A DNA stretch of 64,000 bases, from positions 1 to 64,000 of IMG/VR virus record IMGVR_UViG_3300009001_000006; one strand, given 5' to 3'. The DNA comes from a virus. This document shows, piece after piece, positions 4,267 through 64,000 of the stretch; position 1 is the first letter of the stretch; every line of letters begins with the position of its first letter. The notes under the pieces were generated by a model. That model made no database searches and was not told where the DNA came from. It saw only the letters and a program-made list of their open reading frames with translations. Both the position numbers and the translations under genes were made by a program.

Positions 4267-4821
4267 ATGTCTATAGTCAAAGATAAAATAAACAACAATA
4301 TATCCATAATTAATAAAAAGTATGATATTTTTGCAGATGCTAAGCAAGAATTACTAGATACTAATAATTCTATTATTATACTTAACATATGCAATAATAT
4401 GAATACATACGGAGCTGGTTTTAATAAGGCTGTTGCTAATACTTTTCCAATAGCCAAAGAAAATTATCACCTTCTGGGTTCCAGTAAACTGAAAACAGTG
4501 CTTGGTCATACACAGTTTGTAAAATCTGTGATTGGTCCAAAATATAAAAATGAAATTATTATTGCAAATATGATTTGTCAAACAGGTATAATGTCTGATA
4601 AAAATCCTAGACCTATAAATTACTGTTTTCTTGGTATCTGTCTAGCTAAAGTACAGGCATATATTAAACAATATATGACTGACAACGATTTACCGATCAA
4701 AGTAATTTCACCTAAGTTTCATGGCAATGTCACTGGATGTAATTGGAATTTTGTTTATGAGCTAATATTAGATACTCTTAGAAAACCAACACACACTTAT
4801 GTCTATGAATCATATAATTGA
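4267..4821 (+). CDS. macro domain (ADP-ribose-binding) protein
   Basis: Single macro domain of 184 residues. Visible are NICNNMNTYGAGF (about residues 38-50), which matches the Asn-rich ADP-ribose-binding loop, an AVANTFP segment after it, and a C-terminal HGNVTGCNW loop near residue 158 matching the second phosphate-binding loop. Members bind ADP-ribose or hydrolyse ADP-ribose 1''-phosphate or ADP-ribosyl adducts. It has its own promoter and a strong GGAGG, unlike most genes around it, so it may be expressed early. The next gene overlaps it by 23 bases. NAD-related salvage or counter-defence against ADP-ribosylation are possible roles; both are inference. Confidence 0.8.
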   Translation: MSIVKDKINNNISIINKKYDIFADAKQELLDTNNSIIILNICNNMNTYGAGFNKAVANTFPIAKENYHLLGSSKLKTVLGHTQFVKSVIGPKYKNEIIIANMICQTGIMSDKNPRPINYCFLGICLAKVQAYIKQYMTDNDLPIKVISPKFHGNVTGCNWNFVYELILDTLRKPTHTYVYESYN

Positions 4822-5179
4822 AAAAATTACCTGGCTAAAAAATCGAATGCTTTTCAAGTATAGAGAAACTAAAGATAGTCAAGCTATCAAAAGTATAGAT
4901 ATGATATATCAGTATATATATGACCTAGAAAAGCTAAATATTGAGTCTCCCATTTTAGATCAAGTATTAAATCAATATTATTATGGATTTAGTGATGATA
5001 AAACTGATGGCGAGCTAGATTTTAACTACGGATATACAAAAGAAGAGCGAAACAAAATAAAAGAAGACACAATAAATATTCTTAAAGACATTCATTTAGC
5101 TATGCTACAATCACGCACAATAAAAGATAAAATCTTACTAAATACAGATTTTGAAATCCATGAGTACTGCCTTAAATAA
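4799..5179 (+). CDS. hypothetical protein
   Basis: 126 residues, mostly helical by composition, Tyr- and Asp/Lys-rich, with no signal peptide, membrane segment or recognised motif. It sits in a chain of overlapping genes: 23 bases with the macro-domain gene and 20 with the next gene, which supports it being real and co-translated. Function not recognised. Confidence 0.6.
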   Translation: MSMNHIIEKITWLKNRMLFKYRETKDSQAIKSIDMIYQYIYDLEKLNIESPILDQVLNQYYYGFSDDKTDGELDFNYGYTKEERNKIKEDTINILKDIHLAMLQSRTIKDKILLNTDFEIHEYCLK

Positions 5180-5690
5180 CATAGAAATCAAAAATCTTTT
5201 TAGGGTCGAAGAGTTTATGGAGGCCTGTAAGGCTAATTATGGCATAGTAGCCATTAAAAATAAATTGCACTATAAGCCTAATATCAACCATAATCTGCAC
5301 AAATTCATAGATCCATTAAGAAATATAATAATAGGCATAAATGATTTTTGTTGCTTCACTAATATTAATGTTCTTAATTTTATATCTGAAAAAATACAAA
5401 AAGGCTTTAAAATAATTTTACCAGAAGATTTAGATTTACCATTAGAACTGACGCCGTTCTGTATCACAACTGATACATGGGCTGTAAATTTTATACAAAA
5501 TTACATAGCTTCCGGTTATAATAATGTATCTGCTTATATCAAAAATATAGGATATAATCCTTTTATTTATATGAGTAAAGAATGGAGCTCAAGTAACAGC
5601 TCCTCCATAGTAATGAATTGTATAAATTATAGCATAGAGAACATATTCGATATAATTATACAACAAAATAATAAATTTGGAATAGTTTAA
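5160..5690 (+). CDS. hypothetical protein
   Basis: Start chosen at the ATG at 5160, which overlaps the upstream stop, rather than the in-frame TTG at 5151. 176 residues, Ile/Asn-rich, ending NNKFGIV. No known motif was recognised. The segment LPEDLDLPLELTPFC near the middle and a Ser-rich WSSSNSSS stretch are its most distinctive parts. The stop is fused to the next start as TAATG. Confidence 0.55.
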   Translation: MSTALNNIEIKNLFRVEEFMEACKANYGIVAIKNKLHYKPNINHNLHKFIDPLRNIIIGINDFCCFTNINVLNFISEKIQKGFKIILPEDLDLPLELTPFCITTDTWAVNFIQNYIASGYNNVSAYIKNIGYNPFIYMSKEWSSSNSSSIVMNCINYSIENIFDIIIQQNNKFGIV

Positions 5691-14750: not shown

Positions 14751-15401
14751 ATGTTTATAGAATTTTTAGTAGACTATTTATATACTGACCAGGAGACCAA
14801 AGATCTCTTTAGAGAATTAAAAACAAATTACGCTGATAGTATAGACTATATACTTATTAATGAACATCAATATAGACTTGCCAGCTATTTTTTTAGTAAC
14901 GCAAAAATTAATGTGTATATAGACTATCCATTAGGATTAAGTACTACGGAAAATAGGATTGCTTCTATATCAAACATATACAATAAATGTAATACGGTTT
15001 CTTTACAAGCGCCAGCATCATTTATCGTCAATAGAAAGTATGATAAAATACGTAAAGAAATTTCTTTGATAAAAGAATCATTTCCTAATATTAGTTTAAG
15101 ATATATTGTAGATTATAGAAAATACAACCATAATATATTAGCTAAATTTGCTAGTATATTAAAAGAAAATAAAATAGATACACTTTATCCGTCAACAGGT
15201 TTTTTTATAGATAATATATACGATAATATATTAGCGTGTAAGTATCTGGAAGAAAAATCAAAGATTAAAACTATTTTTAATGCTAACATATGGACTAAAG
15301 ATCATATAGATCTTATAATAAAATTGAAACCAGTAGGTGTTAACATACAAAATATACATTCCCTAGCTCTCATCAAACAGTATTATGACTCAGAAGAATA
15401 A
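14751..15401 (+). CDS. DeoC-like aldolase-fold protein
   Basis: 216 residues with a TIM-barrel flavour: YIDYPLGLSTTENRI near residues 57-71, KEISLIKESFPNISLRYIVDY near 101-121, LYPSTGF near 146-152 and a late IQNIHSLALIKQY. This resembles deoxyribose-phosphate aldolase (DeoC), including the GLSTTEN strand and the STG phosphate loop, but the catalytic Lys pair is not certain by eye. It could salvage deoxyribose phosphate or make a sugar precursor. It starts three bases after the ClpP stop and overlaps the following glycosyltransferase by 17 bases. Confidence 0.55.
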   Translation: MFIEFLVDYLYTDQETKDLFRELKTNYADSIDYILINEHQYRLASYFFSNAKINVYIDYPLGLSTTENRIASISNIYNKCNTVSLQAPASFIVNRKYDKIRKEISLIKESFPNISLRYIVDYRKYNHNILAKFASILKENKIDTLYPSTGFFIDNIYDNILACKYLEEKSKIKTIFNANIWTKDHIDLIIKLKPVGVNIQNIHSLALIKQYYDSEE

Positions 15402-16671
15402 TCTTATTTTCGTTAGTATCGCATCGTATAGAGATCCTGAATTATTACCAACATTACGGGATATGTTTTTAAAAGCTAAGAACCCAGAATTAATTACTGT
15501 TGGTATATGCTGGCAAAAAACAGAAGATGAAACAATAGAAGAATTTCTGTATCATGATAATGTCAGAATATACGAATGCGACTGGCGAGATAGTAAAGGG
15601 GCCTGTTGGTCACGACATATTATCCAAAAACATTTATATAAAGACGAAGAATATTTTTTACAATTAGATTCTCATCATAGATTTTTACAAGATTGGGATG
15701 AGCATTTAAGAAATTTATATCATGAATCAAACTCAGCAAAACCAATTATCGGAGGGTATGGTACTACCTACTGGCCAGAAAAGCCACAAGAAGCGTTAAA
15801 GAATGAACCATACAGAATTATTACTTTTGATACTTTTACAGAAGATGGGGATATAATATCTCGACCTCAATTGATCAATAATCATAAATATTTAAAGTCA
15901 GAGGGTATTAATTTAATTAAAGCAAGATTGCTTTCTGGTCATTTTATCTTTACAACAGGGCATTTTTGTCGAGAATGTATATATGATCCAAATTTGTATT
16001 TTCGCGGTGAAGAGGTAACCCTTAGCGCAAGAGCATACACTCATGGTTACGATATGTTTCACCCCACATACACCATTATATGGCACGAATATTTAAGACA
16101 AAAACAACACAAACATTGGGATGATCATGTTAAAGCTAATAATTTTGAAATCGAAGCAGAAGCCAGAAATATAAGATCGAAAGAAAGGCAGCGTAAGCTT
16201 TTTGGTATGGAATTATCTAATATAGATTTCAGACATTATGGACTAGGCAACAAAAGAACCTTACACGAATACGAGCTTTATTGCGGCTTGGATTTCCAGA
16301 ACAGAAGAGTGCATAAATACGCTGCTCGCATCAATGACTCTACAAACATACCAGAACCATACATCATGACAGAAGAAGAGTGGTCAAATGGCATGCTTGG
16401 TACCAATACTTATAATGTTGAATGGAATAGAGATGACATACCAGATAATGTTAAGTTTGATTTCTGGTTTTTTGGTTTTGAAGACAAAGACAATAATTTA
16501 CTGTGGAGAAAAGACTTTAATCACGAAGAAGCTTATTATGAAGATATTTTCAACAAAAAGAGGAATTCCCATCACGCTAAATTTTCATGCGATGGAAAGG
16601 TAGATCATTGTGTAATTATCCCACATATTGAAGGTGGTGACTGGTGCAAAAAAATAACCATTAAAGTTTAA
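15385..16671 (+). CDS. GlcNAc-type glycosyltransferase (GT60-like)
   Basis: 428 residues. The N-terminus LIFVSIASYRDPELLPTL (7-24) is characteristic of the glycosyltransferase (GlcNAc) family, whose eukaryotic members add GlcNAc to hydroxyproline of Skp1. LQLDSHHRF carries the metal-binding DxH-type motif, and GHFIFTTGHF and YFRGEEVTLSARAY follow. The last ~115 residues, from KYAARIND, form a separate beta-rich domain of unknown type. No membrane segment. A protein-directed acceptor such as a Pro/Thr-rich virion tract is attractive but unproven. Confidence 0.72.
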   Translation: MTQKNNLIFVSIASYRDPELLPTLRDMFLKAKNPELITVGICWQKTEDETIEEFLYHDNVRIYECDWRDSKGACWSRHIIQKHLYKDEEYFLQLDSHHRFLQDWDEHLRNLYHESNSAKPIIGGYGTTYWPEKPQEALKNEPYRIITFDTFTEDGDIISRPQLINNHKYLKSEGINLIKARLLSGHFIFTTGHFCRECIYDPNLYFRGEEVTLSARAYTHGYDMFHPTYTIIWHEYLRQKQHKHWDDHVKANNFEIEAEARNIRSKERQRKLFGMELSNIDFRHYGLGNKRTLHEYELYCGLDFQNRRVHKYAARINDSTNIPEPYIMTEEEWSNGMLGTNTYNVEWNRDDIPDNVKFDFWFFGFEDKDNNLLWRKDFNHEEAYYEDIFNKKRNSHHAKFSCDGKVDHCVIIPHIEGGDWCKKITIKV

Positions 16672-27493: not shown

Positions 27494-28438
27494 ATGGACA
27501 GAAATGCGAAAATATATATAGCTGGCCACAATGGCATGGTCGGTAAAGCTATTCATAAAACATTATCACAAAAAGGCTATGATAATATCATAGTTAAAAC
27601 CAAACAAGAATTGGATCTTACCGATCAATTAAAGGTAGATAAATTCTTTAGAGACAATAATCCAGAATATGTTTTCCTAGCAGCAGCCAAGGTTGGCGGT
27701 ATCACATGTAATAAAAATTATCCAGCAAATTTTATTAGAGATAATTTATTAATACAAACAAATGTGATAGACAGCGCGTGCCAGTATGGAGTAATTAAAC
27801 TCTGCTTTTTGGGGTCTGCGTGTATATATCCTAAGTTAGCATCTACCCCGATTAAAGAATCGGATTTATTAACTGGTTCTTTGGAAGAAACAAATATAGC
27901 ATATGCTATTGCAAAAATAGCTGGTTATATGATGTGTCATAAATATACTGAACAATATGGTTTCAATACAATATCTTTAATGCCTGCTAATTTATACGGA
28001 CCTAATGATAATTTCAAGTTAGATGAATGTCATGTTATTCCTGCACTTATCAGGAAATTTATTAATGCTAAAGAGCAAAATTTACCAAATGTAGAATGCT
28101 ATGGTGATGGTAGTCCTACCAGAGAATTTTTACACGTTGACGACCTGGCTGACGCTGCTGTGTATTTAATGAATAGATATAATAACCCCAATATTATTAA
28201 TGTTGGAAATGGGTTGGAGGTAAGCATTAAACATCTTGCTGAAAACATTAAAGAAATTGTAGGATATGATGGAGAAATTATTTGGAACACTCAATATCCA
28301 AATGGCACACCTAGAAGATACTTAGATGTAACTAAAATTAATAGCTTAGGATGGTCATCTCAAATAGATCTTTACGAAGGTTTAAAAAATACTATTTTTT
28401 GGTTCGAAAACACACCAACAACAAATAAAAGAGTATGA
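27494..28438 (+). CDS. fcl: GDP-L-fucose synthase
   Basis: Short-chain dehydrogenase that converts GDP-4-keto-6-deoxymannose to GDP-L-fucose by epimerisation and NADPH reduction. Seen: IYIAGHNGMVGKAI (8-21, nucleotide site), GSACIYPKLASTPIKESDLL (family-specific loop), the YAIAKIAGYMM active-site Tyr-x-x-x-Lys, and GDGSPTREFLHVDDLADA. Length 314 is normal. It has its own promoter and overlaps gmd by 4 bases, so donor synthesis is a two-gene operon. It is not inactive by any visible motif. Confidence 0.92.
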   Translation: MDRNAKIYIAGHNGMVGKAIHKTLSQKGYDNIIVKTKQELDLTDQLKVDKFFRDNNPEYVFLAAAKVGGITCNKNYPANFIRDNLLIQTNVIDSACQYGVIKLCFLGSACIYPKLASTPIKESDLLTGSLEETNIAYAIAKIAGYMMCHKYTEQYGFNTISLMPANLYGPNDNFKLDECHVIPALIRKFINAKEQNLPNVECYGDGSPTREFLHVDDLADAAVYLMNRYNNPNIINVGNGLEVSIKHLAENIKEIVGYDGEIIWNTQYPNGTPRRYLDVTKINSLGWSSQIDLYEGLKNTIFWFENTPTTNKRV

Positions 28439-42798: not shown

Positions 42799-44262
42799 AT
42801 GAAAAATACTATACTGGCAGACCCTTCTGCCGAAAGAGCAGTTCTAGCTGGTTTGTGTAAATATGGTGAAAATGCCTATTTAGATATAGCAGATATTCTG
42901 TCTAGCTCTGTTTTTACTATAGACAGTAATCAGGTTATATACAACTGTATTAAACATATATATGAGCAAAATAATACCTCAGAAATAGATCTTGCTTCTA
43001 TATATTCTGCGGCACAAGAATTAGGATGCTCTGAGTTAATTTCATCAAAAGAAGAAACTTTACATATTAAAGCTATCCTTATGTTTCCTGTTGAACAAAG
43101 CAACCTAAGGAAATTTGCTACAAAAATTAAAAAGCTAGAAATTGCCAAAACGATCTCGCAGCAATTAAATATTGCCCAGCAAGATATAGAAAATATTACG
43201 GGTACGGAATCTATTAATGATATATTAAATATTGCAGAAAGCAAGGTTTTGGATCTGGGTCAATTGCTTGGTGATGGTAATAATGATCCAGAATCTATTG
43301 GCAAAAATATCGAAGAATATATTAAAAATCTAGAAGAAAACCCGATATCTCAAGTGGGTCTTTCTACGGGCTTCCCCATCTACGATAAAGCTATTGGTGG
43401 TGGGCTCAGAAAAAGTACCGTAAATGTTATCGCAGCTAGACCAAAAACAGGCAAAACCCTACTCGCAGACAATATGGGTTATTTTTTGGCTAGTAACGGC
43501 ATACCGGTTTTAAATATGGACACTGAGATGACTACTGAGGACCATATCAACAGAATCCTGGCGATGATGACAGAGATAGACATGTCAACCATTGAAACTG
43601 GCGGCTTCAAAAATTCTAGTGACCTAAAAGCTAAAATACACGAAGCTACCCAAAAATTACAAAGCACTAAACTGTATTATAAATCTATTGCTGGTAAGCC
43701 ATTTGAAGAACAAATGTCTATTATGAGAAGGTGGCTAATTAAAGAAGTAGGACTCAATGATGATGGCACAGCAAAAGATTGTGTAATATTTTACGACTAT
43801 CTAAAACTCATGGATAGTCAAGGAATCAGCCAAGATATGAAAGAGTATCAGGTCTTGGGTTTTATGATGACGCAATTACATAATTTTGCCACAAAATATA
43901 AATTACCTATAGTCGCATTTGTTCAATTAAATAGAGATGGTATTACTAAAGAAAGCACAGATACCGCTAGCGGATCAGACAGAATCATTTGGCTTTGTAG
44001 TAATTTCTCCATTTTTAAGCGTAAGTCCGATGAAGAAATTGCAGAAGACGGTCCCACTGGAGGTAATAGAAAATTATTGCCGGTAGTAAGTAGACATGGT
44101 GCTGGCTTAGACGATAACGATTATATCAATTGTCATATGCAAGGCTGGTGTGCAAAAATAACAGAAGGTAAAACAAAATTAGAATTAGCTAATAATCCCA
44201 CAAAAGATTTTGAGATAAATAATGATGGAACTAGCGATCAAGAAGAAATACCGTTCATATAA
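42799..44262 (+). CDS. dnaB: replicative DNA helicase DnaB-type
   Basis: 487 residues. The N-terminal helical domain (DPSAERAVLAGLC) is DnaB-like, the linker follows near 150-175, and the RecA-like domain has Walker A AARPKTGKTL, IFYDYLKLM (Walker B region), and ATFVQLNRD-type VAFVQLNR (DnaB motif H3/H4). This is a hexameric 5'-3' helicase and central to the replisome. It overlaps the primase by 41 bases. Confidence 0.9.
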   Translation: MKNTILADPSAERAVLAGLCKYGENAYLDIADILSSSVFTIDSNQVIYNCIKHIYEQNNTSEIDLASIYSAAQELGCSELISSKEETLHIKAILMFPVEQSNLRKFATKIKKLEIAKTISQQLNIAQQDIENITGTESINDILNIAESKVLDLGQLLGDGNNDPESIGKNIEEYIKNLEENPISQVGLSTGFPIYDKAIGGGLRKSTVNVIAARPKTGKTLLADNMGYFLASNGIPVLNMDTEMTTEDHINRILAMMTEIDMSTIETGGFKNSSDLKAKIHEATQKLQSTKLYYKSIAGKPFEEQMSIMRRWLIKEVGLNDDGTAKDCVIFYDYLKLMDSQGISQDMKEYQVLGFMMTQLHNFATKYKLPIVAFVQLNRDGITKESTDTASGSDRIIWLCSNFSIFKRKSDEEIAEDGPTGGNRKLLPVVSRHGAGLDDNDYINCHMQGWCAKITEGKTKLELANNPTKDFEINNDGTSDQEEIPFI

Positions 44263-45388
44263 TCAAACAGAAATCAAGAATATATGCGACGGCTTATGTA
44301 ATAATATAGAAGATTTTTGTAGTGCATTAAATTTAGACTGCGTTCATAATGATAAAATGATCACAATGAGCTGTCCTATTCATGGTGGAGATAATCCATC
44401 AGCACTCAATCTTTATCATGGTGTAGACGGTAGCTATGATTATAGTGTTGGCAATTGGGTTTGTCGCACACATCATTGTGAGAAAATTTTTCAGCCTTCT
44501 ATTATAGGTTTTATGAGAGGGGTTTTGTCAGTTGGCGAAAAACAATGGCAAAAACCAGGGGATGAAATGTATCCTTTCGCCAAAACAATCGAATTAGCTT
44601 TAAAAATTCTTAAGAAAGATGTTAAGGATATTCGCATCCAAAATATCAACAAAGAAAAAAGTAATTTTACTAGACATATACACACAATATCTACTCCAGA
44701 CGTGGTAGTAAACCCAAATATCACCAGAGATGTAGTGCGTAGCACATTAACTATACCATCTGATTATTATGTCGATAGGGGTTTTACCAAAGAAATATTA
44801 GATAAGTATGACGTGGGTTTATGCTCAAATCCAAAGAAAGAAATGTATGACAGGGTGGTTGTACCAATATATGATCAAGATTATAAATATATGGTTGGCT
44901 GCACCGGTAGAAGTATCTATAATAAATGCAACAGTTGCGGCTACTTCCATAATCCACAATCAGAGTGCATAACTGGCAAATGGGCATGGAAGTATTCTAA
45001 ATGGAAACATAATAAAGACTTCAAAGCAAAAGACCATCTTTATAATCTATGGTTCGCCAAAAAACACATAATGCAAAGCGGGGTGGCTATTATAGTTGAA
45101 AGCCCTGGGAATGTCTGGAAATTGGAGCAAGCAGGAATTCATAACTCTATTGCAATTTTTGGCACATCTATGAGCGATAGGCAGAAAATGCTATTAGATT
45201 GTTCTGGAGCCATGTCTGTGATAATAGCATTAGATCCTGATGATGCTGGTGTTGATGGGGCAAAAAAAATACAGGATAAATGCCAAAGAACATATAATAC
45301 AAAAATTATAAGCAATTTGAAAACAGATATAGGCGAAATGACTACCGAAGAAATAGAAACTATTTTAAAGCCACAGATGGAGAATTGA
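44222..45388 (+). CDS. TOPRIM DNA primase
   Basis: 388 residues. CPIHGGDNPSALNLY and CRTHHC form the CHC2-type zinc finger, followed by a second zinc-like CNSCGYFHNPQSEC, then TOPRIM with AIIVESPGNVWKL and ALDPDDAG. A short basic-rich RNA polymerase domain may lie between. It lacks a fused helicase, unlike T7-type, and works beside DnaB. The start overlaps helicase by 41 bases; a second ATG directly follows the first. Confidence 0.85.
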   Translation: MMELAIKKKYRSYNQTEIKNICDGLCNNIEDFCSALNLDCVHNDKMITMSCPIHGGDNPSALNLYHGVDGSYDYSVGNWVCRTHHCEKIFQPSIIGFMRGVLSVGEKQWQKPGDEMYPFAKTIELALKILKKDVKDIRIQNINKEKSNFTRHIHTISTPDVVVNPNITRDVVRSTLTIPSDYYVDRGFTKEILDKYDVGLCSNPKKEMYDRVVVPIYDQDYKYMVGCTGRSIYNKCNSCGYFHNPQSECITGKWAWKYSKWKHNKDFKAKDHLYNLWFAKKHIMQSGVAIIVESPGNVWKLEQAGIHNSIAIFGTSMSDRQKMLLDCSGAMSVIIALDPDDAGVDGAKKIQDKCQRTYNTKIISNLKTDIGEMTTEEIETILKPQMEN

Positions 45389-45389
45389 T

Positions 45390-45983
45390 ATGAGTATAAT
45401 TATAGCTATGGCTGGCAGAAAACAATCTGGAAAGACAAGTGCTTGTGAATATATTGCTAAAATATTTGCTAAAGAAGCACAATTAAATTCTGCTATATAT
45501 AATTTTGCAGATCCATTAAAGCAGATGTGTATTAGTATCTTTGGCTTAACATATGAGCAATGTTATGGTTCAGATGACCAAAAAAATGAATCTGTTAATT
45601 GTAAATGGCCAGATAGTGGTAAGGTTATGTCTGCTAGAGAAGTTATGCAATATGTTGGTACTAACGTTTTTAGAAAAATGCAGCATAATGTTTGGGCAGA
45701 TGCTACCATTAGAAAAATACAAGATGAAAAATTACCATTAGCTTTAATTGCTGATTGTCGCTTTCCTAATGAAGTACACGCCATAAAAAATGCTGGAGGA
45801 TTAGTCATTAAACTCAACAGAAATCTGTATAACTCCTCGCATGAAAGCGAAATAGCATTAGATGAAGATCAATATGACCCATCCAACTTTGATTTGGTTA
45901 TAGACAATAGAAACCTAGAAATTACAGAAACCCACCAATTAATTAAAAACTACCTACAAGTAAAGAGGGTACTACCATTATAA
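45390..45983 (+). CDS. deoxynucleoside monophosphate kinase-like protein
   Basis: 197 residues, with P-loop GRKQSGKTS (about 9-17), NFADPLKQMC, a VMQYVGTNVFRKM segment and CRFPNEVHAIKNAGG. This matches T4 gp1-like dNMP kinases, which make dNDPs from several dNMPs. It starts one base after the primase stop. Works with dCMP deaminase and RTPR to supply dNTPs. Confidence 0.82.
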   Translation: MSIIIAMAGRKQSGKTSACEYIAKIFAKEAQLNSAIYNFADPLKQMCISIFGLTYEQCYGSDDQKNESVNCKWPDSGKVMSAREVMQYVGTNVFRKMQHNVWADATIRKIQDEKLPLALIADCRFPNEVHAIKNAGGLVIKLNRNLYNSSHESEIALDEDQYDPSNFDLVIDNRNLEITETHQLIKNYLQVKRVLPL

Positions 45984-47041
45984 TTACATATTTTAGAAGC
46001 TCCTCTTACGGCACACATAATATGTGCGAACAACAATATTTTATTGAATACGTGTTAGGTAGAAGAGGGCTATCTAATAAAAAAGCAGATAAGGGCACAA
46101 TTGTACATAAGGTTTTAGAAATTTTAGCCCTTATGAAAAAAGGTGTTCAGGATAAAGAAATTATTATAGTGGATGATATTATTGGCGATATTAATTTGGA
46201 AAAATGTGATATGTTTGATAATACATACGTTCTCTATTTGTGTAATGCTGTATACGATTACTATACTTCACAATTTACCCATCATCAATGGTTTGATAAA
46301 GATAGAAAAGATTGTATAGAATGGGTTAGAAAAACCTTAACATCCAATAACCGTCTTTTTGATCCAAGACTAAGAAATATTTTTAGAGCTGAACAGCATT
46401 TTGATATTTCTATAGACAAAGAGTGGGCTAAATATAAATACGACACACCAAATGGCCCGCTAGAAGGTGTTCTGTCTATCAAGGGTACTGTAGACTTGAT
46501 CACACAAGTATCGGACGACACTTTGGAAATTATTGACTGGAAAACAGGTAAAAGATTGAATTGGGCAACTGGTGAAGAAAAAACTCAAGAAAAATTAGAA
46601 CAAGATCCTCAATTAAGAATTTACCATTATGCTATACACAGGCTTTTCCCTCAATTTAAACATATTATTATGACCATTAATTTTATGAATGATGGTGGTC
46701 CGTTTTCCATTTGTTTTGATAATGAAGATAATGCTATAACAGCAGAATATATGATTAGAGAAAAGTTTGAACGCATAAAAAAGAATAAACGGCCCCATCT
46801 AAAGAAAACCTGGAAGTGTACCAAATTATGCCATTTTGGAAAAAACAGCTTCTTGGAGGACGAGCACGTTGCTCCTATGATAGAGTATAGAGATGGTCAC
46901 ACAACACCCAAAGACCAACTTATGACTCAGTGTGAACAAATTAAACACGACAACGACATTAATGGTATGGATTATGTTGTTGACAATTATACATTACCAG
47001 GACATTCAGTAGATAAATATAAAGCTCCAGGAGAAGTTTAA
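45983..47041 (+). CDS. Cas4/RecB-family PD-(D/E)XK exonuclease, probable ATT start
   Basis: The clear family start YFRSSSYGTHNMCEQQYF begins upstream of the first ATG (46022), in an open stretch with ATT as first possible codon at 45983, overlapping the previous stop (TAATT). The protein would be 352 residues. GTVDLITQVSDDTLEIIDWKTGKRL (read in parts) carries the D...E-x-K nuclease core, and QLRIYHYAIHRL follows. Cys residues near CTKLCHFG may bind an iron-sulfur cluster. It likely resects DNA for recombination. Confidence 0.78.
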   Translation: MTYFRSSSYGTHNMCEQQYFIEYVLGRRGLSNKKADKGTIVHKVLEILALMKKGVQDKEIIIVDDIIGDINLEKCDMFDNTYVLYLCNAVYDYYTSQFTHHQWFDKDRKDCIEWVRKTLTSNNRLFDPRLRNIFRAEQHFDISIDKEWAKYKYDTPNGPLEGVLSIKGTVDLITQVSDDTLEIIDWKTGKRLNWATGEEKTQEKLEQDPQLRIYHYAIHRLFPQFKHIIMTINFMNDGGPFSICFDNEDNAITAEYMIREKFERIKKNKRPHLKKTWKCTKLCHFGKNSFLEDEHVAPMIEYRDGHTTPKDQLMTQCEQIKHDNDINGMDYVVDNYTLPGHSVDKYKAPGEV

Positions 47042-47044
47042 TTA

Positions 47045-48919
47045 ATGTACACCCCATTACATGTACACACGCATTATAGCTTATTGGACGGCATCTCAAA
47101 ACCTGATCAGATAGCAAAAAGATGCAAAAAGCTTGGCATTAAATCTTGCGCCATTACCGACCATGGCACAATATCTGGTAATATAGATTTCTATAAAACC
47201 ATGAAGAAAAACGACATTAAACCCATATTGGGTTGTGAGCTATATATCAGTCCAGATGCATCTGTAAAAAACAAAGACAACAGATCTTTGTCACATTTAG
47301 TTGTATTAGCTAAAAATTATGATGGATGGCAAGACTTAATAAAGATAGTTTCACGATGTAATAGCGAGGATTTCTTTTATTATAAACCTAGAATAGATCT
47401 CAAAAATATTAAAGACAATATTGCTACTAAAAATCTTATCTGCATTTCTGGTCATCCTGGCTCAACTTTAGCCAATAGTATTTATAGTTTTACTGATCAG
47501 TCATTAGTTGATAGTTGGGAGAATAAAGCAAAAGAACATATTGATATCTTGCAAGAAACTTTTGGTAAAGATAATGTTTTTATTGAAATCCAATTAATGG
47601 ACACAGAAAACAAAGATCAACAAATTATAGGCAAATCATTAAGATCTTACGCACAAAAAAATGGCATTCAAAGGGTTGCTACTATAGACGCTCATTATTG
47701 CGAATCTATCGATGCTGTTGATCAAAGAGTTTTATTGTGTAGTTCACTAAAAACTACCCTGCCCGATGTATCAAATAAAATAATCAATAATCAAGAAGTG
47801 GCGTTATCAACATTTTTTACTTCTGATAAATATTACATTTTATCACCAGAAGAAATGAATCAACTTCATGATGATGAGGAAATTAGTAATACATTGAAAA
47901 TAGATCAAATGTGTGAAAATTATGATATCTTAAAACCACCACAGCTTCCTTCTTTTGATTGCCCAGACAATCAATCTCCTATAGACTATATTAGAGAATT
48001 ATGTAGAGTAGGTTGGAGAGAGAAAATACACAACAAAATACCTAAAGATAAACAAGAAATATATGTAGAAAGAGTTAAAAAAGAATTGGAAGTTTTGGCT
48101 GGAGCTAATCTATCTAGTTATTTTTTGATAGTAAGGGATATAGTAAATTATGTTAAGTCTATAAATTGCTTACCCGGCCCAGGTAGAGGTAGTGCAGCTG
48201 GATGCTTAGTTTCCTATTTAATAGGTATCACAGCAATAGACCCAATACAGTATGATTTAATCTTTGAAAGATTTTATAACACTGGACGTAATACAGAAAC
48301 TCGCATATCCATGCCAGATATCGACGTTGATGTACCTATCGAACACCGAGAAGATATTATCAATTATATTAAGGAAAAATACGGATATGATAAAGTATCA
48401 CAAATGATCACATTTAACACCCTTAAGGGCAGGGGTGCCCTAAAAGAAGTATTAAGAGTTTATGGGAATATTTCTTTTGAAGAAATGAATAAAATCACCA
48501 AAAACATTCCTGATGAAGCTAAAATTGCTGATGAATTACAGGAAATGAAAGATGAAGATGGTGGAGCTTCTATAATTAGATGGTCTTTAGAAAATAATGG
48601 TGATAAATTAAAAGAATGGTGCTATCTAGATGATGATGGTGAACTACAAGGTCCACTCGCTAAAAGATTTGAACAAGCAATACGTCTTGAGGGATCTAAA
48701 TATAATCAGTCAAAACATGCTGCTGGTATCGCCATTGCTAATAATTCATTAAACACAATATGTCCAATGATTTGGGACACCAAGGCTAATCAAAACATAG
48801 CTGGTTTTGAAATGGGTGATTTAGAATCTATAGGTGTGATTAAATTTGATATTTTAGGTATAGCCCTATTAGATAAAATGATGCTCGCAAAAGAACTATT
48901 AAATGTAAAGGCTTTATAA
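47045..48919 (+). CDS. dnaE: DNA polymerase III alpha subunit, N-terminal half (PHP and palm)
   Basis: 624 residues. The PHP domain starts with PLHVHTHYSLLDG (H-x-H), then ITDHG, GCELY, SLSHLVVLAK and IDAHYC. Its palm has GRGSAAGCLVSYLIG and PDIDVDVP (catalytic Asp pair) and ends with the third Asp in IKFDILG near residue 604. The gene stops just after the palm. Fingers and the rest are encoded at 49782, with a 58-codon gene and an exonuclease gene between. No intein splicing motifs are seen, so two chains must assemble. Most PHP metal ligands look intact. Confidence 0.88.
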   Translation: MYTPLHVHTHYSLLDGISKPDQIAKRCKKLGIKSCAITDHGTISGNIDFYKTMKKNDIKPILGCELYISPDASVKNKDNRSLSHLVVLAKNYDGWQDLIKIVSRCNSEDFFYYKPRIDLKNIKDNIATKNLICISGHPGSTLANSIYSFTDQSLVDSWENKAKEHIDILQETFGKDNVFIEIQLMDTENKDQQIIGKSLRSYAQKNGIQRVATIDAHYCESIDAVDQRVLLCSSLKTTLPDVSNKIINNQEVALSTFFTSDKYYILSPEEMNQLHDDEEISNTLKIDQMCENYDILKPPQLPSFDCPDNQSPIDYIRELCRVGWREKIHNKIPKDKQEIYVERVKKELEVLAGANLSSYFLIVRDIVNYVKSINCLPGPGRGSAAGCLVSYLIGITAIDPIQYDLIFERFYNTGRNTETRISMPDIDVDVPIEHREDIINYIKEKYGYDKVSQMITFNTLKGRGALKEVLRVYGNISFEEMNKITKNIPDEAKIADELQEMKDEDGGASIIRWSLENNGDKLKEWCYLDDDGELQGPLAKRFEQAIRLEGSKYNQSKHAAGIAIANNSLNTICPMIWDTKANQNIAGFEMGDLESIGVIKFDILGIALLDKMMLAKELLNVKAL

Positions 48920-49096
48920 TATGAAATTTAAAGACGTTCAGGTTGGTCAGAGATTTATCTATAAGCAATTAGAATATCTAAAAGTAACAGAAATGAAAAA
49001 AAGTTGCTGTAAGATAGAATATAATGCAGTAAAATTACAAGACAATTCTAACATATTATTTGAATATAAAGCAGAAGTGGAGTTAGTTAATGATTA
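48920..49096 (+). CDS. small protein between polymerase halves
   Basis: 58 residues in one tight frame: ATG overlaps the upstream stop (TAATATG spacing of none) and the stop overlaps the exonuclease ATG. It reads as small beta-strand domain: FKDVQVGQRFIYKQLEYLKV, MKKSCCKIEYNAVKL and FEYKAEVEL. It resembles small phage proteins with a barrel-like fold. A structural bridge in the split polymerase is possible but unproven. Confidence 0.55.
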
Positions 49097-49785
49097 GAAA
49101 TAAAATTTGTGTATTTGATTTTGAAACAGACGGTAAGGACCCGAGTGTGTGTAGTCCTGTTCAATTATCTGCTGTTATAGTAGATCCTATCAAATTAGAG
49201 ATCGTGAAAGACTCTCAATTTAATACCTTATTAAAGCCAGAAAAATTGGATGATGATGTAGACAATCCTTATACAGACTCTGACATATTAGAATGGCATG
49301 GTAAAGTTAGGTCTATTTCTGCAGAACAGGTTTTGTCTGAATGGAAAGAATATCCCAACCAGAAACAATCATGGTCACAATTTGTATCTTATTTAGATAA
49401 ATATCATTCTAAAGCCAATGGTGGTAAAAAATCACAGTTTACAGCGCCTATAGCTTGTGGATATAATATCCTCAGATTTGATATGGCTATTGTGGATAGG
49501 CTTAGCGTCAAGTATAATAACGTAAACAAAGAAAAGAGCACATGTTTGTTTCATCCTAGAGATAAAATCGATTTGATGCATGTAATGTTTTTATGGATGA
49601 GTTACGTTTCCGAAGTAAGATCACTATCTTTAGATAATATGCGTGATTATTTAGGATTAAGTAAAGACAATGCGCATGATGCAGTTAAAGATGTTGAGGA
49701 TTGTGCTAAAATATTAATAAGATTTCTTAGGCTACATAAAAATTTAAGCAGTAAAATACAATTTAAGGGTGCTTTTAGCTCATGA
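49090..49785 (+). CDS. DnaQ-like DEDDh 3'-5' exonuclease
   Basis: 231 residues. FDFETDG (Asp, Glu), GYNILRFDM (Asp) and HDAVKDVEDCA (His, Asp) form the four-residue DEDDh set. This is the fold of the bacterial epsilon proofreading subunit. It sits precisely between the two halves of the polymerase gene, with overlaps of 7 and 4 bases, so proofreading for the split polymerase is inferred. Confidence 0.85.
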   Translation: MIRNKICVFDFETDGKDPSVCSPVQLSAVIVDPIKLEIVKDSQFNTLLKPEKLDDDVDNPYTDSDILEWHGKVRSISAEQVLSEWKEYPNQKQSWSQFVSYLDKYHSKANGGKKSQFTAPIACGYNILRFDMAIVDRLSVKYNNVNKEKSTCLFHPRDKIDLMHVMFLWMSYVSEVRSLSLDNMRDYLGLSKDNAHDAVKDVEDCAKILIRFLRLHKNLSSKIQFKGAFSS

Positions 49786-51392
49786 AGACTATTACTTTTG
49801 CAGACTGTGCTTGTGAGTTTCCTGTCGATGAAAACGGAAAAATTGATTTAGATATTAGTTTAGAAAATATCTGTCTAAGTTGTAATAAAACTTGGAATTT
49901 GATTTCTGAGGGTAATACAAAGGGTTGCTTTCAGCTGGAATCTAGGCTCGGTCAAATGATGTCCAAAAAATTAAAACCTAATAATATTGAGCAACTTTCT
50001 GCCCTAATTAGTATTATGAGGCCGGGATGTCTAGAGGCTTATCGTGATGGAAAATCGGTTAGCAATCATTATATAGACAAAAAGAATCAAGAAGAAGAAG
50101 TAGATTTCTTTCACGAGTCTTTAGAGCCGATATTAAAAACCACTTATGGAGAAATGGTTTATCAAGAACAGGCTATGCAGATATGTCAGAAAGTAGCTAA
50201 TTTTGACCTTACTGAAGCTGATAGACTCAGAAAAGCAATTGGTAAGAAAAAGCCAGAAGAAATGAAGAAAATCAAAAAACTTTTCATTAAAAAAACAGCC
50301 GAAACCAAAATATTATCAAAAGAAGAAGCTGATCAGGTATTCGGATGGATCGAAAAAAGTCAGAGATATAGTTTTAATAAAAGTCATGCTGTTAGTTATG
50401 CATATAACGCTTATCTATCGGCCTATATTAAAGCTCATTTTCCTAAACATTTTTTTGCATCTTATCTTAAATTTGCTAAAGATAAAATAGACCCGCTCAA
50501 AGAAATACAAGAATTAATTAATAACGCCAACCAAATGGGAATTGATGTGTATAAACCAAGCATATCAAAGCCAAGAGAAGAGTTTTTTATAGACGAAAAT
50601 GATCACCAGATATATTTTGGTCTTACTGATATTAAGGGCGTTGGGGGATCTGTATATCAAAAAATTATAGAGATATTAAATAATATTAATCTTAAAGATA
50701 TTAGTTTTGGAGAATTATATTGTAAATTTTTTCAACATATTAATTCTACAGCCGTTAAAGCCCTGATTTCTGTTGGCGCTATAGACTGTTTGTCTATCTC
50801 AAGAAATAGAATGCTATTCTACTATGATTGTTTAAATAATTTAACAAGTAGAGAGTCGGGTGTTATTGAAAATATTTTTCAAAAAGAAAAAGAGATTGAT
50901 AAAGCTTTAGGTTTATTGGTTGATAATACAGAAAAGAAATTGACTGCGAAAAGAAAGGATGTTATCCTATCAATTATCAACAGTATACATAAGCCACCCT
51001 ACAGTCTACAGGATAGTCCAGAATGGATAGCAAGTAATGAGAGATTTTATTTGGGTATATCTTTGACTTGTCACAAAATAGATGGTTGTGATATTTATTC
51101 TGCTAATGTAGAATGTAAAGATTTACTCAAAAGTGGCTGTCCAAAACAGCCGGTTTTAGGTGCTGAAATTGTAGATATCAATGTTATAAAAACTAAAAGA
51201 GGGCTTAATCCAGGTCAAGAGATGGCTTTTGTTAAAGCAGAGGATTCTACTGGTGCTTGCGATCTGGTTATTTTCCCCGAAGAATTTAATAAATACAAGG
51301 ATTTACTAATGGAAGGAAATACCCTATTATTAAAATTAGATAGATCCAAGAATAAGGATTCTTTTATAGTAAAGAAATGCTGGCAAGTGTAG
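49782..51392 (+). CDS. dnaE: DNA polymerase III alpha subunit, C-terminal half
   Basis: 536 residues. It begins at the linker before the fingers: the TKGCFQLESRLGQ segment (about 47-59) matches the classic FQLES motif, then RPGCLEAYRDGKS, ADRLRKAIGKKKPEEM and FNKSHAVSYAYNAY. An HhH-like region (YFGLTDIKGVGG) and a C-terminal OB fold (VLGAEIVDINVIKTKRG) follow. This half has no catalytic Asp triad, which is in the first half. An OB-ended second half suggests it handles DNA binding and contacts. Confidence 0.88.
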   Translation: MKTITFADCACEFPVDENGKIDLDISLENICLSCNKTWNLISEGNTKGCFQLESRLGQMMSKKLKPNNIEQLSALISIMRPGCLEAYRDGKSVSNHYIDKKNQEEEVDFFHESLEPILKTTYGEMVYQEQAMQICQKVANFDLTEADRLRKAIGKKKPEEMKKIKKLFIKKTAETKILSKEEADQVFGWIEKSQRYSFNKSHAVSYAYNAYLSAYIKAHFPKHFFASYLKFAKDKIDPLKEIQELINNANQMGIDVYKPSISKPREEFFIDENDHQIYFGLTDIKGVGGSVYQKIIEILNNINLKDISFGELYCKFFQHINSTAVKALISVGAIDCLSISRNRMLFYYDCLNNLTSRESGVIENIFQKEKEIDKALGLLVDNTEKKLTAKRKDVILSIINSIHKPPYSLQDSPEWIASNERFYLGISLTCHKIDGCDIYSANVECKDLLKSGCPKQPVLGAEIVDINVIKTKRGLNPGQEMAFVKAEDSTGACDLVIFPEEFNKYKDLLMEGNTLLLKLDRSKNKDSFIVKKCWQV

Positions 51393-51468: not shown

Positions 51469-51864
51469 ATGAATTTAGTAATTTTGAGAGGCAACCTTGC
51501 TAGAGACCCAGAACTTCGTTATGTTAATCCTTCTGGGAGAGAAACAGCTGTAATTAATTTTACTGTTGCTGTATCTAGAGAATTCACCAAGAATAATGGT
51601 GAACAAGATAAGGTTACCACATTTGTTAATTGTGAAGCCTGGGATACTGGAGCAGAAGCTATCGGAAATTCCTTCAGGAAGGGAGATCTCGTTATGATCG
51701 AGGGATCATTAAGAAATGACACCTGGGAAAAAGATGGTGTTAAAAGATCCACAATGAAGGTTAGAGTTAATAATTTTGCTCGTATACAGAAGGTGTCGAA
51801 ATCTTCTGGAAAGACGGCAGAGGAAAGTAAGGATAGTAGTGAGGAACCCGCTGTAGCCTTCTAG
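51469..51864 (+). CDS. ssb: single-stranded DNA-binding protein
   Basis: 131 residues. MNLVILRGNLARDPELRYV is the bacterial SSB start, WDTGAEAIGNSFRKGDLVMIEG covers the OB fold and the acidic tail ends EEPAVAF. The classical C-terminal DDDIPF-type tip is only acidic-hydrophobic here. It has its own strong promoter and a terminator, so it is the only monocistronic, presumably abundant, gene in this block. AGGAG ribosome site. Confidence 0.93.
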   Translation: MNLVILRGNLARDPELRYVNPSGRETAVINFTVAVSREFTKNNGEQDKVTTFVNCEAWDTGAEAIGNSFRKGDLVMIEGSLRNDTWEKDGVKRSTMKVRVNNFARIQKVSKSSGKTAEESKDSSEEPAVAF

Positions 51865-61449: not shown

Positions 61450-62403
61450 TTATTGATCCTCCTGATTTAAAGAATTATCAACAGCAGGAGTGCTTTGTGT
61501 AATTTGATTTCCAACATAACCTAATCCTGTCACCACAGGATCGTCTGGCACAGGTCTTACACCAGGTGTACCCGGCCGACCTTCACAATCACCCGCCTTA
61601 TCTACATTAGTAAGATAATGTACATTTTCTCCTATTACAAATTTCTTACTAGGCTCATAAGCTGTTTCTTCACCATATCTATAATCTATAGTACCTGCAC
61701 CGCCACAAGAACCGGCAGCTATACTATTTAACAATGTTCTCAAAGCACCGCTAGGGGGTGCGATTTTTTTACTAATAGGCACAAACGTAAAGTAGCTACC
61801 AACAATTTGTACAAAAAAATCATAACCAGCTTCTTGGCATGCCTGATCAACAATATTTAAAACATTACTATGACTATCACTAATTCTAAGGTAAAATGGA
61901 CATATGGCAATAATTTGAGATAAATCCATATATAAAGTTCCGCCACAAACAGGTAATAGCACAGCCCTTTGGTTTAGTGCTTGTAAGACATAATTCATAG
62001 GAATGCCAGACTCATCCTTCAATGAATTCATAAAATCGCCACAATCAAAATTACAAATACTAGGCTCTAAAAGAGCTAAAACATTATATATATTAGGACT
62101 ATTAATAGGACAATAATAATCATCTAATACTGCGATAACATTATTCAGGCTTTGTCTGCCATCCGTAAGTCTGACGTCCCACACTAATCCGCCAGAAGAT
62201 TCCTGATATGTATGATCTGCTAATACACCGGTGAAAGAAAGCCCACCAACAGCTATGGTATATATGCAACCTAAAGACCCATTATAAGTGCCACAATCTC
62301 TTTGTTCTACTAGTTTTAAGGAAACGCTAGACTCGTTACTACCGAAACCTAAATTACATGTGATACTAGCTATTTCGCAATTAAATGCTTTAGTAGAAGC
62401 CAT
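61450..62403 (-). CDS. tail hub-like structural protein
   Basis: 317 residues. LADHTYQESSGGLVWDVRLTDGRQSL (split, about 62-86) and YDFFVQIVGSYFTFVPISK (about 193-211) resemble hub domains of the gp27/VgrG class: a turn-rich beta domain with a conserved WDVRLTDGR strand. Many Cys residues (CDGCGD, SCGGAG). The C-terminus has a Pro/Gly-rich tail. It overlaps the upstream gene start and leaves 3 bases to the downstream gene. Structural role is likely; family call is moderate. Confidence 0.6.
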   Translation of the reverse strand: MASTKAFNCEIASITCNLGFGSNESSVSLKLVEQRDCGTYNGSLGCIYTIAVGGLSFTGVLADHTYQESSGGLVWDVRLTDGRQSLNNVIAVLDDYYCPINSPNIYNVLALLEPSICNFDCGDFMNSLKDESGIPMNYVLQALNQRAVLLPVCGGTLYMDLSQIIAICPFYLRISDSHSNVLNIVDQACQEAGYDFFVQIVGSYFTFVPISKKIAPPSGALRTLLNSIAAGSCGGAGTIDYRYGEETAYEPSKKFVIGENVHYLTNVDKAGDCEGRPGTPGVRPVPDDPVVTGLGYVGNQITQSTPAVDNSLNQEDQ

Positions 62404-64000
62404 TTGGTTCTTTCTCTAGTATAATGGTGACTAAATCTTTTGATTTGTTGATAAAGAATTCCTGTTTTTTTGATAAGTATCCTTCGTGCCAAGATTCTAT
62501 AGAATATTTGCCATAATCCAATTCTACAATACCATATCCACAACCATCGATTTTATTTCCATCATCATCAATGATTTCATAACAAGCTTCAGATGGTGAT
62601 ATATTAATTAATACCCCGTTTGTAAATTCTGGTGATGTGAATAATAATTTACTTGGTGTTTTATCGTAAGTATTTAATGATTCTATAGGAATATCATAGG
62701 TTTTTGACATCATAGCTTGAGAATATTGTTGTTCTTCTTTAAATGATTTTAATATAGTGAATGCATAATATTCGCTATTTATATTTGTCTTATTATATTC
62801 AATAGCATAAATATATCTATCGTATACTTTAATTTTATAATCCCCATGGGTCAAATCATTAATCCTTAAATAATTGTCCTTAATATCATAATATGATTTA
62901 TTATCGTCTTTGTCTATTAATTCAGCTTTTAAAGAATTCTTATCTCCACCAGCAACATATAAATATATCTCACCAAGATTGTTATTAGATTTGGTGGTCA
63001 AACACCTAATATCAATTTGTTTAGACTTGTTGAGAAAATTTAAAACTTGCTCTGGATTATTAGGTAAAAAATTAATAATTGTTGATATATTTGGAGATAT
63101 ATAAAGACCGCTAGTTGTATAAGAGTACCTAATAGTTTCTGTAATAGATTTATCTGTCTTTGTATCTGTTAAAGACACAATATCATCATTGTGAAATAAA
63201 TATTCATAATTTTTATCTAATATAATAGATCCTATTAATAATTTATTTTGATTATTAAATGTCGTATCATGGTATAAGGTGATGTCTTCGTCGCCAATAG
63301 ATAATACAGAAGTAGCTTGTGATATTCTGGTTAATCCAGGACTAATATAAAAATACATATAATCTAGACCATCAATACTTACAGTATCAAAGTCTAATAC
63401 TATATTTTGCTCTGTTTTTTGTTTTTTGTGCTCTAAGACAATTTTATTCGATTTTAATTTTTTGTGGAAGTCTTTTATTTTATTTTTTTCTAGTGGTATT
63501 AATAAAAGATTATAAAGCTTTTGTGTTGTTTCTTCAGGAAAATAAGATTCGCTACGGTAGTCTGCAGAAATTTTTGTATTAACTAAAATATTAGATGGCT
63601 CAGATATGAAAAAATCCTTATATATCTTACAGTTATTAGAGTCTGTAACAATTAATGTATAATAATTAGACTTGAGTTTATTTTTAATAGAGTTTTTATT
63701 AACAACAATAGGTTTGCTATCATCCTGTATAAACCAAGCTATAGAATATGGGGCTTTACCACCAGATATTGTACATTCAACATTTTCTGATGTTCCGCCA
63801 TTATATTTAATGGGCTCCCATTGTAATTCTACTTTTAAATAGTCTATTTTTTTACTAATATTTTTACGCTCAACCATACAACCCAAACTATCTTTAATAG
63901 TAATATCATATGTATGATCGGCTTTAATCTCATCAACTATATTATTATCATTAGTAGTAATATTTTTACCGTTTATAGACACAGCATATGGTGATTTACC
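62390..64000 (-). CDS. SprB-repeat tail protein (5' partial)
   Basis: Minus-strand frame stays open to the window edge (GKSPYAVSINGKN precedes the GTG at 63982), so the start lies beyond. At least 536 residues. Two SprB-type repeats are seen near the N-terminus: one truncated by the edge, and one with SGGKAPYSIAWF, YTLIVTDSNNC and ISEPSN. The remaining part has alternating beta segments (LFHNDDIVSLTDTKTDKS, YYFISPG-type) and ends with EPNGFY. SprB repeats occur in bacterial surface adhesins, so host binding is inferred. Confidence 0.65.
   Translation of the reverse strand, partial: GKSPYAVSINGKNITTNDNNIVDEIKADHTYDITIKDSLGCMVERKNISKKIDYLKVELQWEPIKYNGGTSENVECTISGGKAPYSIAWFIQDDSKPIVVNKNSIKNKLKSNYYTLIVTDSNNCKIYKDFFISEPSNILVNTKISADYRSESYFPEETTQKLYNLLLIPLEKNKIKDFHKKLKSNKIVLEHKKQKTEQNIVLDFDTVSIDGLDYMYFYISPGLTRISQATSVLSIGDEDITLYHDTTFNNQNKLLIGSIILDKNYEYLFHNDDIVSLTDTKTDKSITETIRYSYTTSGLYISPNISTIINFLPNNPEQVLNFLNKSKQIDIRCLTTKSNNNLGEIYLYVAGGDKNSLKAELIDKDDNKSYYDIKDNYLRINDLTHGDYKIKVYDRYIYAIEYNKTNINSEYYAFTILKSFKEEQQYSQAMMSKTYDIPIESLNTYDKTPSKLLFTSPEFTNGVLINISPSEACYEIIDDDGNKIDGCGYGIVELDYGKYSIESWHEGYLSKKQEFFINKSKDLVTIILEKEPNGFY

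What the first reader, a model, noticed from the sequence alone, without database searches (positions are those of the whole stretch)
47045..51392. DNA polymerase III alpha split exactly between palm and fingers, with a proofreading exonuclease gene in the gap
All three palm Asp motifs are in the first gene, which stops about 20 residues after IKFDILG. The FQLES fingers motif opens the second gene. A 58-codon gene and a DEDDh exonuclease gene sit between, with overlaps at each junction. No intein motif or frameshift signal is visible. A split family-C polymerase with its exonuclease between the halves would need a distinctive assembly.
Basis: partly seen in the sequence, partly recalled or inferred. 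Interest (0 to 1): 0.78.

Follow-up and report, generated by a model that had tools for sequence, protein, structure and literature searches.

The report
Phage DNA polymerase in two genes
A large, uncultured group of aquatic phages makes its only recognisable DNA-copying enzyme as two separate protein chains, with the gene for a proofreading enzyme always between the two halves, which shows that the core of a bacterial-type replicase can be cut in two and still be kept by evolution.

Summary
Window 47045-51392 encodes a DNA polymerase III alpha subunit (family C) in two genes. The first holds PHP and palm with all three catalytic Asp; the second holds fingers, HhH and OB-fold. A 58-residue gene and a DEDDh exonuclease gene lie between them. 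It is not an assembly error: the order N, (small gene), exonuclease, C holds in all 174 distinct related pairs examined, and none is fused. The split group is one clade (100/100). All 18 large records checked have one fingers domain and no family A or B polymerase or beta clamp. Catalytic residues are conserved and N, exonuclease and C are under purifying selection. No intein is detected at the break, although a real fractured intein was detected elsewhere in a relative's N-half.

Most likely the halves are co-translated and join non-covalently into the phage's replicase, with the exonuclease as proofreader. Assembly is inferred, not shown. A sister clade (65 loci) is split at a different joint, PHP|palm, again with a DEDDh exonuclease gene between (56 of 57 assessable loci). 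Cultured phage phiT1 has an independent palm|fingers split without an exonuclease between. Working split phage polymerases are known in family B. I found no description of this arrangement in the searched literature.

The parts
47045..48919 (+). N-half of DNA polymerase III alpha: PHP domain (res. 5-183), palm (res. 315-605), short tail; 624 aa
   Evidence: Pfam PF02811 3.6e-43, PF07733 2.9e-72; aligns to Taq/E. coli/M. tuberculosis Pol III alpha; D425, D427, D602 in 105/105 relatives
48921..49097 (+). Small gene S, 58 aa, predicted small beta-barrel with conserved Cys-Cys; accessory, function unknown
   Evidence: AF2 pLDDT 96.6; no convincing fold match, best E 0.15 (EF-P/eIF5A-like); absent in 14/113 relatives
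49090..49785 (+). DEDDh 3'-5' exonuclease (DnaQ-like), 231 aa, presumed proofreading subunit
   Evidence: Pfam PF00929 5.7e-9; PHROG 'DNA polymerase exonuclease subunit' 3.5e-19; five catalytic residues in 112-113/113
49782..51392 (+). C-half of DNA polymerase III alpha: 49-residue head with CxCxF, fingers, helix-hairpin-helix, OB-fold; 536 aa
   Evidence: Pfam PF17657 2.3e-45, PF14579 1.9e-11; AF2 pLDDT 89.9; Foldseek best hits are all Pol III alpha, E 8.6e-23
48917..48920 (+). N|S junction: TAA stop, 1-nt gap, then ATG (no overlap)
   Evidence: sequence
49782..49785 (+). exo|C junction: 4-nt ATGA overlap; a -4 or -8 overlap is the commonest state in relatives (56/113)
51469..51864 (+). Single-strand DNA-binding protein, next gene downstream in the same module
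   Evidence: Pfam SSB 1.9e-26
42799..47041 (+). Rest of the replication module upstream: DnaB-like helicase, Toprim primase, dNMP kinase, PD-(D/E)XK nuclease
   Evidence: Pfam, PHROGs

Best explanation
The phage's only recognisable replicative polymerase is a two-chain DNA polymerase III alpha. N (PHP + palm) and C (fingers + HhH + OB) are translated from adjacent, mostly coupled cistrons and fold onto each other non-covalently, closing the active site that in other family-C polymerases is one chain. The break lies in the loop between the last palm helix and the strand leading into the fingers, so no core element is lost. The DEDDh exonuclease encoded between them is the proofreading subunit, alongside a PHP site that also keeps the full active motif. 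Fixing the break at a domain boundary and nesting the exonuclease inside the cistron probably secures stoichiometric co-translational assembly. Shown: gene order, conservation, intact active sites, purifying selection, sole polymerase found, no intein detected. Inferred: non-covalent assembly, exonuclease partnership, co-translational benefit, origin of the break (plausibly a homing-endonuclease insertion).
For: Order N-(S)-exo-C in 113/113 distinct pairs and 65/65 of subclade 2; 174 distinct pairs, 0 fused. Clade support 100/100. Palm D 105/105, exo DEDDh 112-113/113; PHP HHDHEHHDH in 91/105, the rest missing only residues at the gene start, which matches the published 'active' motif HHDHEH[C/H]DH (PMC12926913). 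dN/dS about 0.03-0.13 for N, exo and C wherever dS could be estimated. 18/18 large records: one fingers domain; no PolA, PolB or beta clamp. C-half alone predicted with good confidence and matches Pol III alpha. Junction overlaps suit translational coupling. Precedent: split gp43A/43B of phage 25 co-purify with polymerase activity (PMC2988022).
Against: No experiment and no co-fold of the chains was possible. No beta clamp is encoded and no clamp-binding motif is obvious, so processivity is unexplained. The records checked may be fragments, so a missed second polymerase cannot be fully excluded. In part of subclade 2 other genes sit between exo and C (26/65 with >150 nt gap), so tight coupling is not obligatory. 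phiT1 has the same split with no exonuclease between, so the exonuclease is not needed for a split enzyme.
Confidence: 0.82

Rival explanations
1. The halves are rejoined covalently (split intein, trans-spliced or spliced intron) into one normal polymerase.
For: DnaE is a classic intein host (cyanobacterial split DnaE). Inteins and homing endonucleases do invade these phages' N-half: fractured intein in L072, LAGLIDADG ORF in L062/L220.
Against: No intein domain at the N end or C start at E up to 0.1, while the same search finds Intein_splicing in L072. N tail and C head are homologous to intact polymerases almost up to the break, with their own stop and start. The gap holds full genes, conserved over 174 pairs. 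Rfam finds no intron, but it also found none at L220's interruption, so that negative is weak.
Confidence: 0.04
2. The exonuclease gene is only a neighbour: it is a nuclease of another kind (for example nucleotide scavenging or recombination) and not part of the polymerase.
For: No binding test possible. phiT1 has a split polymerase without it. Standalone DnaQ-like proteins are common and not all are proofreaders (PMC12926913).
Against: Present between the halves in every complete locus of both subclades. A sister clade with a different break point also has a DEDDh exonuclease between its pieces in 56 of 57 assessable loci. It evolves as slowly as the polymerase and has a conserved C-terminal motif in 84/113.
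Confidence: 0.15
3. The polymerase is a decaying or accessory copy and another polymerase replicates the genome.
For: Records may be incomplete.
Against: No PolA or PolB in 18/18 large records; active sites invariant; strong purifying selection; sits in a replication module with helicase, primase and SSB.
Confidence: 0.03
4. Assembly or sequencing artefact.
For: L019 shows frameshifts in its N-half.
Against: Same break in 174 distinct pairs from many metagenomes, and in MAG contigs.
Confidence: 0.01

Closest known systems
DNA polymerase III alpha, DnaE type (E. coli, Taq, M. tuberculosis DnaE1)
   Same: All domains from PHP to OB in the same order, same catalytic residues
   Different: Two chains; ends after the OB-fold, no tau-binding C-terminal domain; exonuclease gene nested between
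Cyanobacterial split-intein DnaE
   Same: DnaE encoded by two genes
   Different: No intein detected at the break; halves adjacent in one gene cluster
Split gp43 (family B) of Aeromonas phages 25 and 44RR; Aeh1 split NrdA (PMC2988022)
   Same: Phage replication enzyme in two chains; for phage 25 gp43 and Aeh1 NrdA shown experimentally to work; homing endonuclease associated with the break in phage 25 and Aeh1
   Different: Different polymerase family; reported for a few T4-related phages, whereas here it marks a whole clade; a proofreading gene, not an endonuclease, in the gap
Minimal split Pol III alpha of group 2.2 jumbo phages (PMC7824862)
   Same: Family-C catalytic module in two phage proteins
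   Different: That one lacks the other domains, coexists with a family B polymerase and is encoded by distant genes; here PHP to OB present, sole polymerase found, adjacent genes
Rossellomorea phage phiT1 gp20/gp18 (PV767480)
   Same: Break at the same palm|fingers joint, small ORF (49 aa) between
   Different: Not in the clade; no exonuclease between
PolC
   Same: Family-C polymerase with both PHP and DEDDh exonuclease
   Different: There the exonuclease is a domain inserted in one chain; here a separate gene at another place

Membership tests
DNA polymerase III alpha (family C, DnaE type) | Three catalytic palm Asp | tested here: met
   105/105 relatives
DNA polymerase III alpha (family C, DnaE type) | Fingers domain | tested here: met
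   PF17657 2.3e-45; Foldseek to Pol III alpha
DNA polymerase III alpha (family C, DnaE type) | N-terminal PHP domain with metal site | tested here: met
   PF02811 3.6e-43; HHDHEHHDH; motif from PMC12926913
DNA polymerase III alpha (family C, DnaE type) | Single polypeptide | tested here: not met
   Split in 174/174 pairs; usual but not a catalytic hallmark, hence 'variant'
DNA polymerase III alpha (family C, DnaE type) | Clamp-binding motif | tested here: inconclusive
   Inspection only: no invariant Gln after residue 194 in alignment A1; no clamp gene in 18 records
Split-intein DnaE | Intein halves at the break | tested here: not met
   No Pfam intein hit at the break; positive control L072
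DnaQ-type proofreading subunit | DEDDh active site | tested here: met
   112-113/113
DnaQ-type proofreading subunit | Binding to the polymerase | not testable with these tools
   Only single-chain prediction available
PolC | Exonuclease domain inside the polymerase chain | tested here: not met
   Separate ORF with own start and stop
Jumbo-phage minimal split Pol III (PMC7824862) | Minimal module without other Pol III domains, distant genes, coexisting PolB | tested here: not met
   PHP, HhH, OB present, adjacent genes, no PolB
Homing-endonuclease split gene (T4-like mobE/seg type) | Homing endonuclease in the gap | tested here: inconclusive
   None in the window; Endo VII-like ORF at the exo|C junction in 14/65 loci of subclade 2

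The most novel reading that the evidence does not exclude
The exonuclease is a structural bridge: it binds both halves, so that the polymerase is an obligate heterotrimer (N-exo-C) which cannot copy DNA without its proofreader. The sister clade reached the same nesting with a different break point (PHP|palm).
Probability: 0.22. Interest if true: 0.82.

Novelty: new variant of a known kind. Interest (0 to 1): 0.63.

Why it matters
Family-C polymerases are the replicases of bacteria and are known mainly as single chains. A whole phage clade that keeps the enzyme as two chains, broken at the palm|fingers joint and with the proofreader gene nested between, shows that the catalytic core tolerates a permanent break. 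It gives a natural two-part system for studying fingers movement, proofreader coupling and assembly. The repeated exonuclease-in-the-gap layout in a sister clade with another break point makes an old question testable: does gene order guide assembly of a replicase?

Tried and rejected
Intein: none at the break, positive control found elsewhere. Intron: Rfam gave no hits, but it also missed the HEG-type interruption in L220, so little weight is put on this. Frameshift or bypass: the gap holds complete conserved genes. Assembly error: excluded by 174 pairs. Second polymerase: not found. Small gene as obligatory glue: rejected, because 14/113 loci lack it (L003, L020 and others), the L016 clade has a 95-aa ORF there that matches no family, and it is not detected in subclade 2. 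Small-protein fold: no convincing match (best E 0.15). Exonuclease in annotated phages: no match at 1e-3. Literature on this exact arrangement: none found in the open-access library searched; subscription papers were not searchable. Host: MAG binning to Bacteroidota and others is only a hint; ribosome-binding-site statistics were not decisive.

Full report
What is there. The window lies in a 113,832-base virus record. Four plus-strand genes make up the finding. N (47045-48919, 624 aa) matches PHP and the Pol III alpha palm domain, with Asp425, Asp427 and Asp602. S (48921-49097) is a 58-aa gene. X (49090-49785, 231 aa) is a DEDDh exonuclease. C (49782-51392, 536 aa) matches fingers, HhH and OB-fold. 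N|S has a 1-nt gap, S|X an 8-nt overlap, X|C a 4-nt ATGA overlap. Upstream are a DnaB-like helicase, Toprim primase, dNMP kinase and PD-(D/E)XK nuclease; downstream is SSB, so this is a replication module.

Where the break falls. N aligns with E. coli, Taq and M. tuberculosis Pol III alpha to just past the third Asp; C picks up at about residue 578 of E. coli alpha. N ends 16-27 residues after KFDxLG, and FQLES comes mostly 47-61 residues into C. Both sides carry sequence homologous to intact enzymes nearly up to the joint, so the break is in the palm-fingers linker. Most C-halves begin with a CxCxF head, but several (L012, L014, L030, L129, L145, L212, L221) lack it, so it is not essential. 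Modelled alone, C gives mean pLDDT 89.9 and its best Foldseek matches are all Pol III alpha.

Is it general? Two close scans of IMG/VR found relatives, mostly at 52-100% identity, with the same layout; the one exception, L034 at 32%, is discussed below. Among loci with all three genes, 113 distinct N+C pairs all have the order N-(S)-X-C; S is missing in 14. A scan seeded with the most divergent member (L221, from a SAR202 MAG contig) gave a second subclade: 65 complete loci, all N-X-C. In total 174 distinct pairs, none fused. MAG contigs binned as Chitinophagia, Flavobacteriales, Alphaproteobacteria and SAR202 carry it. The annotated phage collection holds no close relative: best N identity 36%, no match for X.

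Is it the working polymerase? In 18 large records there is exactly one fingers domain and no family A or B polymerase and no beta clamp; the control genomes rang as expected. Palm Asp are invariant (105/105), exonuclease residues 112-113/113, and the PHP motif is HHDHEHHDH in 91/105, the others lacking only residues at the gene start. That motif is scored 'active' in PMC12926913, so two proofreading sites are predicted. The divergent L221 has a shortened, degenerate PHP but an intact exonuclease. dN/dS is about 0.03-0.13 for N, X and C where dS is not saturated.

Phylogeny. The palm|fingers split group is one clade with 100/100 support in two trees. Its sister (100/99, long branch, so the placing is less sure than the number says) is a group of 65 loci in which the gene is broken elsewhere, between PHP and palm, and in 56 of 57 assessable loci a DEDDh exonuclease gene again lies between the pieces. 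The two exonucleases are not detectably close. Cultured Rossellomorea phage phiT1 has a palm|fingers break with a 49-aa ORF and no exonuclease between, outside the clade. So breaks in phage Pol III alpha have arisen more than once and the palm|fingers joint has been used at least twice.

Intein, intron, homing endonucleases. No intein domain is found at the break. The clade offers controls: L072 has a real fractured intein inside N with an endonuclease-like ORF between its parts, and L062/L220 have a LAGLIDADG ORF splitting N at the palm motif. Rfam found no intron but was also silent on L220, so that is weak. In subclade 2 Endo VII-like ORFs sit at the X|C junction in 14 of 65 loci. This makes an origin by homing-endonuclease insertion plausible, though they may equally have invaded an existing break, the same ambiguity noted for phage 25 gp43 (PMC2988022).

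Mechanism. I propose a non-covalent two-chain alpha subunit with the exonuclease as proofreader, made from coupled cistrons. Phage precedents work this way: 43A and 43B of phage 25 co-purify and are active, and Aeh1 split NrdA is fully functional (PMC2988022). Whether X bridges the halves is open. X has a conserved C-terminal motif, K[IV]xFKx[AS]F, in 84/113, a candidate docking peptide. S is a confident small beta-barrel with no convincing fold match; it is dispensable in evolution. I give about 0.82 to the two-chain enzyme, about 0.15 to the exonuclease being a mere neighbour, and about 0.22 to the exonuclease being a structural bridge.

Novelty. By domain content it is a DnaE-type Pol III alpha; of the features tested it fails only the single-chain one. 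It is not a split-intein DnaE, not PolC and not the minimal split Pol III of jumbo phages (PMC7824862). I found no paper describing this arrangement, within an open-access library only. I rate it a new variant of a known kind.

Noticed in passing
L324-L388 and L034 (4729-9551): A separate clade (65 loci) with Pol III alpha broken between PHP and palm; a DEDDh exonuclease gene lies between the pieces in 56 of 57 assessable loci.
   Followed up: partly
L072:3029-6105: Fractured intein in the N-half at GRG|SAAGC with an endonuclease-like ORF (4497-5291) between the intein parts.
   Followed up: partly
L062:4393-5244 and L220:3230-4081: LAGLIDADG homing endonuclease ORF interrupts the N-half at EHIS|MPDIDID, the palm active-site motif.
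   Followed up: partly
L221:10251-10652; L276, L283 and others at the exo|C junction: Endonuclease VII (HNH) ORFs recur at the exo|C junction of subclade 2 (14 of 65 loci); other loci carry unrelated or unknown ORFs there.
   Followed up: partly
L232:3486-6768 (Rossellomorea phage phiT1, PV767480): Independent palm|fingers split in a cultured phage with a 49-aa ORF between: the most accessible system for testing a split Pol III alpha.
   Followed up: partly
L242:3480-6887 (Bacillus phage Jayan) and L193:2115-5722 (BpsS-140): Further breaks in phage Pol III alpha: inside the palm region in Jayan (its relative PS1 is intact) and between PHP and palm in BpsS-140.
   Followed up: no
window:49090-49785, last 14 codons: Exonuclease C-terminus carries a conserved motif K[IV]xFKx[AS]F (84/113 relatives), a candidate docking peptide.
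   Followed up: partly
window:47045-48919, residue 137: The seventh PHP metal ligand, Cys in Taq DnaE, is His in all full-length members checked (105/105).
   Followed up: yes
L094:3358-6850: About 3.6 kb of unrelated genes (including a pseudopilin-like ORF) between exo and C; possibly a chimeric contig.
   Followed up: no
L019:5246-7137: N-half broken by several frameshifts in one record, probably sequencing error.
   Followed up: no
window:35501-37699, 15385-16671, 27494-28438, 62390-63982: Ribonucleotide reductase, glycosyltransferase, nucleotide-sugar epimerase and a Hoc-like decoration protein elsewhere in the window.
   Followed up: no
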